From a virus: 22,161 nt of DNA. The position numbers were made by a program, and so were the translations under genes. Below are positions 13,024 to 21,383 of the stretch, in pieces; the stretch's first letter is position 1, and each line of letters begins with the position of its first letter. The notes under the pieces were generated by a model. The model was not told the DNA's origin and did no database searches. It saw nothing but the letters and a program-made list of their open reading frames with translations. Location of the stretch: IMG/VR virus record IMGVR_UViG_3300033153_005765, positions 1 through 22,161 of that record. One strand, written 5' to 3'.

Positions 13024-15804
13024 TTAAGAATTAATAGTTCATTTTCTAAATCATTCTCCAATTTTAATAGCTTCTATTACTTTATTTTTTTCAGATTCAT
13101 TTAAACTTGCATAAGTTTTATTTAAATCTAATCATAATTTAGTAGCTTGAGCTTTATGTCAAGTTGCAGAAGTTCAAGTATGACTTTCTAATAACTTATT
13201 TATACTTAAATTTCACTTAGATTCAAGTAGTTGTCTTCAAGCTTTTAATCATTCTTCAACTGTTTTAAAATTTAATACTAGATTATCAACACTATCAGGA
13301 CTAAATAAGTCTGGAATAGCTCAGAATTTAGTAGTTAATCTTTCTGCACTTCAAGTTCAAGTAGCTGTAATAGCTAAGGGGTTATTAGTTCTAAAAGTTA
13401 AGCTTCATCAACTTAATCATAATACAGTATTGTCTCATCATTTCTCTATTACAGTTACTTTATTTTGTAAAGGTCATAGGATTCAACCTATTTTCCCCTT
13501 TGGTGTAGCAGGTTGTTCTGCATTATCTAAACCCTTGTCTCAGAAAAAAGAATCTAAATCATCATCTGTTGAATCTACATTTAACTTTATATCTGTAATA
13601 GTTTCTGTAACAATTCCTGAATCTCAACCAAATATTAAATTACTAATCTCATCGTCTGAACTTTGACTTGTTATGGTAGATTCAGCGGCAGATATTCATG
13701 TTTGTCATGGAATATTTACACCTGGATATAATGTAGATAATACTCAATCAGGAAAAACCTTATTGTAGTTAGTTGCTCAGAATTTTGATTCATAGAAATT
13801 ATTTGTTGAATTATTAAAGACATCAATTATAGAAAATATTTTTGCTGCATTTAATTCAGCGACTTTTCATATACCTGGAAACACATCAGCATATTCTTTT
13901 GCTTCACTTTCAGAAAAAGCTGCACCAGAACGAGATTGTCTATATTCTTGTATAGCTAAAGCTATTTTACTAGCAATAGCAGCTAATTTAGGATCTTGAG
14001 TAGCTCATAATACTTTACTTTCAAAAGTCTCAGTAACACCTGTTAATATTCATGTATCTCATCCTCATTCTTGAAAAGCTTGTAAATCTTTAGCTATATC
14101 AGTTAAGGCTCAAATAACGTCTTTTCTACCTTGCATCTTTTCTTTTACTTTTTCTCACGTAGATTCTACTGCCGCCTGTAATAAAAACTCTTTAGCAGAC
14201 GCCTCATCTTCTTCATCTAACCTTCTATTAAATTCAGTTATAAGAGATCATTTTTCTTCTTTTGTAAATCACGCTATAGTAGCAGAAGACATAGCATTTC
14301 TTAATGCTCATGTATAATCTTCACTAAATCAAATTTCTGATAATTGTTTTTTAATTTCCTTACTAGATAATCATTCTGACATTAAAGATTGTATAGCATT
14401 TACATTTTCTGTTTTCGTGCTACCAAATAATTCTTTAGCTAAAGATCTAGACTCAGTTATTTGAGTTGCTGATAAAATATCACTAGGATCTCTTTTTAAT
14501 GCTAGTGCAGATATTACTTTATTCCTTATTTTACTCGGAACTTCTCATCTAGTTAATCTTCAAGCTAAGATATCTTCTACATATCATGTTACAGCATCAG
14601 CATCTCATGCTGCTCAAGAAAAATTAACTTTTTTTCAATCAACCATAACTGGATTACCAAATTTATCTGAAACATATCATAATAATTCAGTAGCATTTTT
14701 ATCTATTCAATCTTTATCTACTCAAGCTATTTCTAATGATCCAACCAAAGAATCAAATGCTGATTGCGATTCTATTTTTCATTGAGCAACTAATTCTGCT
14801 TGAGATTCTAACTGTGATTGTAATTTAGTTTGAAGTGCTGTATTAGCTTTAGTTAAAGATTCTTGTAATGAAGCAATTCTTTTTTCATCAGCTCATTCTT
14901 GCTTTGCTTTGAATATATCTAATTCTAATTTAGATGCTGCCTGTGCAGATGAAATCAAAGAATCTCACTTCTCTTGCAACTCTACCATATCAGCTTCAGT
15001 AGCAGAAGATCTTCATACTCATCTCAAACTTCTTTGTCTTTGTAGAAGCTTTTGTTGAGCTGTAACTTGCTTATTTATTTGTTCTGTTTTTTTAGTTAAC
15101 GCATCTTCTAATAAAGCCTCTTTAGCTTCTACACTTGTAGCTCATGCTCATTTAATTCTTTCTTCTTTTAACCTAAAATCTCTAGATTTTAATATTTGTT
15201 TAATTTGAGTATCAGTTAATCATTGTCATTTTAAAAAATCTGATATTTTTGTATCATCAGATGTAGTTGATAATCATTCTTTTTCAAAAGCTCAACTAAT
15301 AAGTTTATCAGCAAAATTTAATGAAACTTCATCAGATAAAACAGATTCAGCAACTCATACTTCATCTTTTATAGTAGAAAATCAAATATTTTTTAATATA
15401 GGATCTTGTTCTCAAGTAACTCATTCTATGTCTCTTCTATTTTTAAGCTCCTTAACTAAAGATTTTGATTTATCATCTCATTTATTAATCACAGATATAA
15501 TACCTTCTCTATCAAGTCAATCAAAAAGCGACGTAGGTTCTTCAGGGGCTTCCCCAGTTATTTCGTCTCATATAACTACAGCGTCTTCTTTTGTTGGGAT
15601 TTTAGGAGTAATTACATCCTCTATAACTTCTTCTTTTTTAGCAGCCGCTTCTTCTGCAAGAGTTTCATCAAGAATGTCATTCATAGAAGGTCATTCTTCT
15701 TTAGGTTTAGCTGACAATCATCATTCTGATTGTTCTAGTTCACTTTTTTCATCAGACCTTAGTATTCTACCAAGTCTTAACTCTTCTTCTTGTATTGTAG
15801 CCAT
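13024..15804 (-). CDS. Large virion protein with C-terminal lysozyme-like domain
   Basis: A 926-residue protein starting MATIQEEELRLGRILRSDEK. The N-terminal 120 residues are acidic and extended. A coiled-coil region follows (about 230-400; KKTEQINKQVTAQQKLLQRQ), then helical repeats. The segment YRQSRSGAAFSESEAKEYAD followed by FPGIG is a pattern seen in large phage virion proteins. The last about 140 residues (FRTNNPLAITATGTG, NFKTVEEGLKAGRQLLE, then ESEKNKVIEAIKIGEGF) resemble the NNPxNI-type lysozyme-like domain of virion-associated murein hydrolases. It may be packed inside the head or tail and help DNA pass the cell wall. The domain match is by eye; tape measure is the main alternative. 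Confidence 0.75.
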
Positions 15805-18521: not shown

Positions 18522-19199
18522 TTAATTAAAAGTTCTTCTAGAAATTCTTCTTGTTGGAGACCTATAAGAATTTTTATATTGTAATTGATTTCTATCAGGT
18601 AATAAAAACGCATTATATAATTTACTTATCTCTCATTTATATCTTTTATCAAATTTTATTTGCGCCCTACTAAAGTTCTTGGCATCTCCAGGCTTTGTAA
18701 GTAAAGCATATGATGCAAATAATACTATAGCTCTATCAAATTGAAGAGAAAAAGGACTTAAATCAGCATTATCAGTTAGTGTTGGTAAAAATTTTCTATA
18801 AGTTAAGTCAATATCTCATATTATTGTAGTAATTGGTGTCAATTGTAGTTTTCAACCAAAAATAGAATAGTTAATTGGTGTTCATGATGGAAAAGATGAA
18901 TAAAATGCTTTTAATTCAATAAAATCAGCTGAATCTAATTCTTTTCAATCAATTTTAACAAGATCAGCACTTTGAAAATCATCAGGCAAATCATATGCTT
19001 GTTGATCAGGAACTGAATCAAACAGAGGAAAAATATCTCTATTTTCAGACCATTTAAAGTTTCAATAGTTTTGAACCTCTAATATAGCCTCATTTATAGC
19101 ATCTGTTAATTCATCGTCGTTCCAGACGCGTCAAATCTTGTCTAATTTCATTTCCAGTCTTGTTTTTGACCTTAATTTCGATAATGATGTATTTGCCAT
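18522..19199 (-). CDS. Head-tail adaptor (connector) protein
   Basis: A 225-residue protein starting MANTSLSKLRSKTRLEMKLD. The segment RVWNDDELTDAINEAILEVQ is the typical helix of P22 gp4/SPP1 gp15-type adaptors, followed by WSENRDIFPLFDSVPDQQAY and YDLPDDFQSADLV. The C-terminal part is helical (LLTKPGDAKNFSRAQIKFDK) and ends in a basic tail (SPTRRISRRTFN). Such proteins bind under the portal and start the tail. It is the first gene of the structural operon, downstream of a terminator and a candidate promoter. Assignment rests on motif style and context. Confidence 0.7.
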
Positions 19200-20562: not shown

Positions 20563-20790
20563 CTATTCATTAAATTCTATAATACTCCCTGCAATCTTTT
20601 TTATATCCTTTGTTAATTCAGCTACCCTTTTTACTTGTGCCTCCTTTCTTTGTAATATAGGACAAAAAGAACCTGTATTCATTATGTCAAGTAATTGAGT
20701 ATTGTAATCTTTAACCAACACCTCAGCTTCTTCTTTTTGGATTTTTAACTTTTCCTTTTCTTTTTTAAGGTTCTCTAAATATTGGTTCAT
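20563..20790 (-). CDS. Small coiled-coil protein
   Basis: A 75-residue protein without any UGA: MNQYLENLKKEKEKLKIQKE ... ending IAGSIIEFNE. A heptad pattern of Leu/Ile/Val with Lys/Glu runs through residues 1-30 and 45-70, broken by the CPILQRKEAQ turn, so it may form a helical hairpin. It opens the small-gene cluster, directly downstream of the structured stretch at 20814-21031. No family recognised. Confidence 0.7.
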   Translation of the reverse strand: MNQYLENLKKEKEKLKIQKEEAEVLVKDYNTQLLDIMNTGSFCPILQRKEAQVKRVAELTKDIKKIAGSIIEFNE

Positions 20791-20813
20791 CAGTTGTTGT
20801 TATTAAATAGTAA

Positions 20814-21031
20814 GTTGAGTGTATAAATAGTTTTAACCATAGTACCCACCTTAGACTAAATCAGGCTTCCTATGTGTGTGATAGTCTTAGTAGTCCTTAC
20901 CTATCTCCTGAAGCTATTAATTAGAATTTAAAATTAACTAACAATAGTATATCTCCAGGGTTTTTTATTATACACTCAACCCACAATTTAATGTGAGTAG
21001 TAAGTTTCACAATAACTTAATATTGTTAGTT
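20814..21031 (-). ncRNA. Candidate structured RNA or long structured leader
   Basis: No reliable reading frame occurs here in either strand. Two long perfect helices can form: GTTGAGTGTATA (20814-20825) with TATACACTCAAC (20969-20980), and AACTAACAATA (20936-20946) with TATTGTTAGTT (21021-21031). They interleave, so together they make a pseudoknot. Shorter pairs (AGACTA/TAGTCT, TCAGG/CCTGA, AATAG/CTATT, GGGTT/AACCC) fall inside, and ACAATA/TATTGT (21009-21026) would compete with the second helix. The block is more G+C rich than the flanks. It could be a leader of the gene at 20790 that folds in two ways, or a free RNA. No known RNA family was recognised. Confidence 0.45.
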
Positions 21032-21062
21032 TATACTCGTCTCGGAGGGCGTTTTCCTATTC

Positions 21063-21355: not shown

Positions 21356-21383
21356 ATATTATAACAAAAACGCAGGAAGTCAA
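21356..21383 (-). promoter_or_regulatory. Candidate promoter of the short RNA / membrane gene
   Basis: On the minus strand: TTGACT (21378-21383), then TATAAT (21358-21363) at 14 bases or TAATAT (21356-21361) at 16 bases. The second spacing is closer to the usual 17. It points at the hairpin-terminator pair. Confidence 0.45.

What the first reader, a model, noticed from the sequence alone, without database searches (positions are those of the whole stretch)
20814..21031. Interleaved long helices form a pseudoknotted RNA candidate
A 12-13 bp and an 11 bp perfect helix cross each other over 218 bases, with shorter nested and rival pairs, in a block that is G+C richer than its surroundings and codes for nothing. 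Chance pairing of this length and order is unlikely. It may be a new phage RNA or a structured leader of the small-gene cluster.
Basis: inference. Interest (0 to 1): 0.7.

Follow-up and report, generated by a model that had tools for sequence, protein, structure and literature searches.

The report
Phage RNA stem with swappable contents
A virus of bacteria that read the stop codon TGA as glycine carries, between two small genes, a 25-base-pair RNA stem; a second, different virus keeps the same stem through matched changes on both sides but has a tRNA-like sequence inside it instead, so the stem looks like a processing clamp around exchangeable RNA contents rather than a pseudoknot.

Summary
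The two inverted pairs are in the sequence as stated, but they differ in standing. The 13-bp pair is the core of a 24/25-bp helix (P1, 20992-20968 with 20826-20802). It is far beyond chance (0 of 160 shuffled windows) and better paired as RNA on the minus strand, the coding strand of this code-25 (TGA=Gly) phage fragment. The 11-bp crossing pair is near chance, not favoured energetically, and not conserved.

One homologous leader was found, in a different phage (G019; two near-identical contigs). Upstream of a 71%-identical gene it keeps the 5' leader and P1. P1 shows four double compensatory changes, two changes to G-U and no broken pair within the 24 pairs of the window's helix. The interior is replaced: 141 nt of unknown RNA in the window, 81 nt with tRNA-like acceptor and T arms in G019.

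Similar 26-27-bp sense-strand helices occur in related phages, one around a tRNA-Cys. Best explanation (0.45): an intercistronic double-strand processing stem (RNase III type) that separates small-gene messages and excises or shields an exchangeable RNA insert. There are no transcript data and no Rfam match.

The parts
20968..20992 (-). P1, 5' arm (ATTAAATTGTGGGTTGAGTGTATAA)
   Evidence: 24 of 25 pairs with 20802-20826, two of them G-U on the minus strand; covaries with L070
20802..20826 (-). P1, 3' arm (TTATACACTCAACTTACTATTTAAT); its end lies 11 nt before the ATG at 20790
   Evidence: sequence read
20827..20967 (-). Interior of P1: 141 nt, three predicted hairpins, no relative found, not homologous to the interior in L070
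   Evidence: fold; alignment no better than shuffles; no Rfam; no match of model R1
20993..21051 (-). Conserved 5' leader, including arm a (21021-21031); 21-nt block ATAAACTAACAATATTAAGTT and 14-nt block TTACTACTCACATT identical in L070
20936..20946 (-).
20791..20801 (-). Single-stranded AACAACAACTG between P1 and the start codon, identical in L070
20563..20790 (-). Gene p75a, 75 aa, lysine/glutamate-rich, no family; first gene after the RNA
   Evidence: homologue 71% identical in L069/L070
21063..21242 (-). Gene p59, 59 aa, hydrophobic at both ends (predicted small membrane protein); last gene before the RNA
   Evidence: translation; no family

Best explanation
P1 is an intercistronic processing stem. 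The small-gene message is transcribed from the minus strand; between p59 and p75a the RNA folds into a 24/25-bp duplex, long enough to be a substrate for the host's double-strand-specific RNase III. Cleavage of the duplex would give the p75a message a defined 5' end just before its unstructured AACAACAACUG start region, and would release or shield the RNA inside P1. The inside can be exchanged between phages: a tRNA-like sequence in G019, an unknown 141-nt RNA here. Shown: the stem, its strand, its covariation, its position, and the swap of contents. Inferred: that it is transcribed, that RNase III cuts it, and that the contents are a separate RNA.
For: P1 scores above anything in 160 shuffled windows. 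It is better paired on the sense strand (46 against 37.5; minimum free energy z -4.35 against -1.12). Between window and L070, P1 has 4 pairs changed on both sides, 2 on one side to G-U, 18 invariant, and 1 pair at the apical end formed only in L070; slid partners give 32-46% paired against 98%. Changed pairs are flanked on both sides by unchanged ones, so this is divergence of one stem rather than insertion of another. In both phages a 25-26-bp helix ends 11-14 nt before the p75a ATG; in L070 that one is a second helix, 2916-2941/2963-2988. Other long sense-strand helices in related or gene-sharing phages: G015 27 bp around a tRNA-Cys, G019 a further 27-bp helix with 92 nt inside a non-coding stretch after a terminator-like hairpin, G006 26 bp with a 42-nt loop. 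In the 43 clade loci searched, the only two well-formed tRNA T arms both lie inside such helices.
Against: Only one independent homologue of P1 was found, so the covariation rests on two sequences; 29 of 500 shuffles reach the same count, which is all the power two rows can give. No RNA-seq. RNase III of the host was not tested. The helices in G006, G015 and the second one in G019 are not homologous to P1, so grouping them is by form only; the G006 helix overlaps a possible 40-aa ORF.
Confidence: 0.45

Rival explanations
1. P1 and its interior form a cis-acting regulator of p75a translation or of transcription through the small-gene cluster, sensing a ligand, protein or temperature.
For: It ends 11 nt before the start codon of p75a, and leader and start region are conserved with that gene in G019. 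The interior forms several hairpins.
Against: The interior, where a sensor would sit, is unrelated in the two phages although the downstream genes are homologous. P1 leaves the start region unpaired. No terminator-like site follows P1 on the minus strand. No riboswitch family matches.
Confidence: 0.2
2. The interior is the functional product, a phage small RNA (decoy, tRNA mimic or regulatory RNA), and P1 is only its protective or maturation end stem.
For: L070 holds a tRNA-like acceptor stem and perfect T arm inside P1 (cmscan 22.9 bits, below the family cut-off); G015 holds a tRNA-Cys inside a 27-bp helix (31.2 bits, above cut-off).
Against: The window interior matches nothing and has no tRNA features at E up to 10. 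The L070 tRNA-like lacks an anticodon arm and ARAGORN does not call it.
Confidence: 0.18
3. A DNA-level element: terminal inverted repeats of a small non-autonomous mobile element, or a recombination site where cargo is exchanged.
For: 25-nt inverted repeats around an exchangeable interior; the surrounding cassette is mobile (188 bp at 98.9% identity are shared with an otherwise different phage).
Against: Single copy in both genomes. No flanking target duplication seen. The non-Watson-Crick pairs other than one U-U are all G-U on the sense strand, and the arms diverged by compensating changes rather than as a repeat family.
Confidence: 0.1
4. The first reader's pseudoknotted RNA, with P1 and the 11-bp helix formed together.
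For: Both perfect helices exist and cross; loop lengths (28, 21, 109 nt) would allow it sterically.
Against: The 11-bp helix is near chance, costs as much as it gains, and arm a' is missing in L070 while arm a is intact.
Confidence: 0.05

Closest known systems
RNase III processing stems between phage early genes (for example T7) and around pre-rRNA (from general knowledge)
   Same: Long intercistronic duplex in a polycistronic message; the duplex, not its contents, is the conserved part; a gene start lies just downstream
   Different: Cleavage not shown; P1 is 24/25 bp with a long structured interior that differs completely between phages, and one phage has a tRNA-like sequence inside
Phage tRNA genes and their precursors
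   Same: G015 has a tRNA-Cys, and G019 a tRNA-like sequence, inside a 26-27-bp helix
   Different: The window interior is not tRNA-like; ordinary tRNA precursors are not known to me to carry such long closing stems
Retron msr-msd RNA
   Same: Long inverted repeat closing a 100-200-nt structured RNA
   Different: No reverse transcriptase (PF00078) in the window, in G019 or in nine other related phage records

Membership tests
RNase III processing stem | Continuous or near-continuous duplex of about 20 bp or more in a transcribed region | tested here: met
   24/25 bp on the minus strand; transcription itself inferred from gene direction
RNase III processing stem | Located between co-directional genes, outside coding sequence | tested here: met
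   Between p59 (ends 21063) and p75a (starts 20790); same in L070
RNase III processing stem | Cleavage by RNase III at the stem | not testable with these tools
   Needs RNA from infected host or in vitro cleavage
   P1 kept, crossing helix lost in L070
Retron ncRNA | Reverse transcriptase encoded nearby | tested here: not met
   PF00078: 0 of 11 records, with 3 of 14 control genomes positive
Any Rfam family, including group I intron, T-box, tmRNA, tRNA | Covariance-model score at the curated cut-off | tested here: not met
   No match at gathering; no related family at E up to 10
tRNA gene inside P1 (as in L070/G015) | Cloverleaf with T arm and acceptor stem | tested here: not met
   Window: none. 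L070: partial, 22.9 bits against cut-off 29
Mobile inverted-repeat element | More than one copy, or target-site duplication | tested here: not met
   Single copy in window and G019; no duplication seen by eye

The most novel reading that the evidence does not exclude
Phages that use TGA=Gly carry a class of 'clamped' RNAs: a 25-27-bp stem in the sense strand, inherited and moved as part of small-gene cassettes, into which different RNA payloads (tRNA, tRNA-like, unknown) are loaded and from which they are cut out by duplex-specific cleavage.
Probability: 0.15. Interest if true: 0.75.

Novelty: new variant of a known kind. Interest (0 to 1): 0.42.

Why it matters
If right, it shows a structural RNA whose closing stem is under selection while its contents are exchanged wholesale, in phages of a poorly known bacterial lineage with an altered genetic code. 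It would give a handle on how these phages process their messages, on where they keep tRNA genes, and on a possible new set of phage small RNAs that profile searches on the interior alone would never connect.

Tried and rejected
Homology by DNA: blastn of the RNA against phages, the portal-related records and held loci gave only chance pieces. Pattern GGAAGCCTGA..AAGGTGGG in viral contigs gave 11 stretches, all judged chance (L064 looked closest and is in another, standard-code genome). Pattern GGTAAGGACTA..GGAAGCCTGA in genome contigs: none. Leader 16-mer AACTAACAATATTAAG: 66 stretches, only the two known contigs real. RNA model R1 from the window alone found nothing in 41 other loci or 10 records. 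Protein scans with tail and head genes failed; a portal alignment reached 34 loci in viral contigs and none in genome contigs. Group I intron and T-box resemblance noted by eye was not borne out by Rfam. A T7-like promoter reading of TTACTACTCACATT was dropped: the motif is single-copy in both genomes; the search for a phage RNA polymerase (PF00940) was empty also in its controls and so says nothing. A conserved nested alternative for arm a (10 bp with the end of the second helix in L070) has no counterpart in the window.

Full report
Setting. With the standard code the window has no long genes; with code 25 (TGA=Gly) a continuous set of phage genes appears, all on the minus strand, with 288 in-frame TGA among 4627 codons of nine large genes, and the stops read at eleven genes are all TAA or TAG. 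Terminase, portal and tail genes match phage families. Code 25 is the code of Gracilibacteria and Absconditabacteria, whose phages often share it (PMC10746230). The window is a 22,161-base virus record. In two related phages (G003, G002) the gene at the right end of the window is followed directly by the gene at 19199, so the cluster with the RNA is an extra cassette here.

The observation. The two perfect pairs exist and cross. On the minus strand the 13-bp pair extends to 24 of 25 pairs with two G-U. The minus strand folds better than shuffles (z -4.35), the plus strand does not (z -1.12). A stem scorer found none as good in 160 shuffled windows. The 11-bp pair is unremarkable: 4.8 such helices are expected in the window, 11 are seen, and 12.9% of local shuffles have one. 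Forcing it without P1 costs 18 kcal/mol; adding it to P1 only reaches the nested optimum before any pseudoknot penalty.

The homologue. A scan with p75a found two near-identical contigs, L069 and L070 (record G019, 36 kb), with a 71%-identical p75a. They share 188 bp at 98.9% identity further down, including a 41-aa gene with 100% protein identity, while L070 carries other flanking genes, so the cassette has moved between phages. Upstream of p75a, L070 keeps the leader (21-nt and 14-nt blocks identical), then a 26-bp helix in the position of P1. Counted pair by pair: 18 unchanged, 2 changed to G-U, 4 changed on both sides, and one apical pair present only in L070. Slid controls pair at 32-46%. 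With two rows the shuffle control has little power (29 of 500). Innermost pairs TATAA/TTATA are unchanged, so the changed pairs lie between conserved ones; this speaks for point compensation and not for insertion of a new repeat.

The contents. The window interior (141 nt) and the L070 interior (81 nt) are no more alike than shuffles. The L070 interior holds an acceptor-like stem and a perfect T arm without an anticodon arm; cmscan gives tRNA at 22.9 bits, E 0.022, below the cut-off, and ARAGORN does not call it. Arm a of the crossing helix is kept in L070, arm a' is not. L070 has a second 26-bp helix directly before p75a whose 3' arm resembles that of P1.

Similar forms elsewhere. In a related phage (G015, L055) a 27-bp helix encloses a tRNA (31.2 bits, above cut-off; tRNA-Cys with an intron setting in ARAGORN). 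In G019 another 27-bp helix with 92 nt inside lies in a non-coding stretch after a terminator-like hairpin. In G006 (L053) a 26-bp helix lies in a gene leader. Where both strands were scored, the sense strand scored higher. The only two well-formed T arms in the clade loci lie inside such helices. These helices are not homologous to P1; the grouping is by form.

Mechanism. The parsimonious reading is an RNA duplex that separates two cistrons, cut by RNase III, with contents that are either carried along or released. Conserved AACAACAACTG before the ATG stays unpaired. Retron RNA is excluded for these records by the lack of reverse transcriptase with working controls. No step of processing has been observed.

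Limits. One independent homologue; no transcript data; metagenome collection not available; host unknown beyond the code.

Noticed in passing
window 21352-21265 (minus): Promoter-like TTGACT/TATAAT at about 21383-21356 followed by an 11-bp hairpin (21297-21267) with a T run; an upstream TTTGCAGC is complementary to GCTGCAAA in the hairpin loop. Looks like a leader attenuator or small RNA with loop pairing (fold z -3.78).
   Followed up: partly
window 21610-21580 (minus): TTGACA, 16 nt, TATAAC: strong promoter-like site; its spacer shares CCTGCGT with the site at 21383, a possible operator.
   Followed up: no
window 20093-20070 and 20230-20207: 24-nt direct repeat before two small genes (AATAACCAATAACACTATG on the minus strand); the block shared with L070 at 98.9% starts at it, as if it were a recombination linker.
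   Followed up: partly
window 19910-19659: 83-aa protein with relatives in proteobacterial phages (44% in Pasteurella phage Pmp11); recalls the anti-CBASS protein Acb2 from memory, not confirmed by Pfam or PDB sequence searches.
   Followed up: partly
window 11053-8480: Terminase large subunit gene with a probable intein near residues 97-433 (PHROG hits to the two halves); relative L006 has its intein-like insert at a different site.
   Followed up: no
L055 1636-1764: Phage tRNA-Cys with a long variable region inside a 27-bp helix that continues its acceptor stem.
   Followed up: partly
L142 about 14924-15069 (rc 2158-2303): 27-bp helix closing a 92-nt non-coding interior right after a terminator-like hairpin; unknown RNA.
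   Followed up: partly
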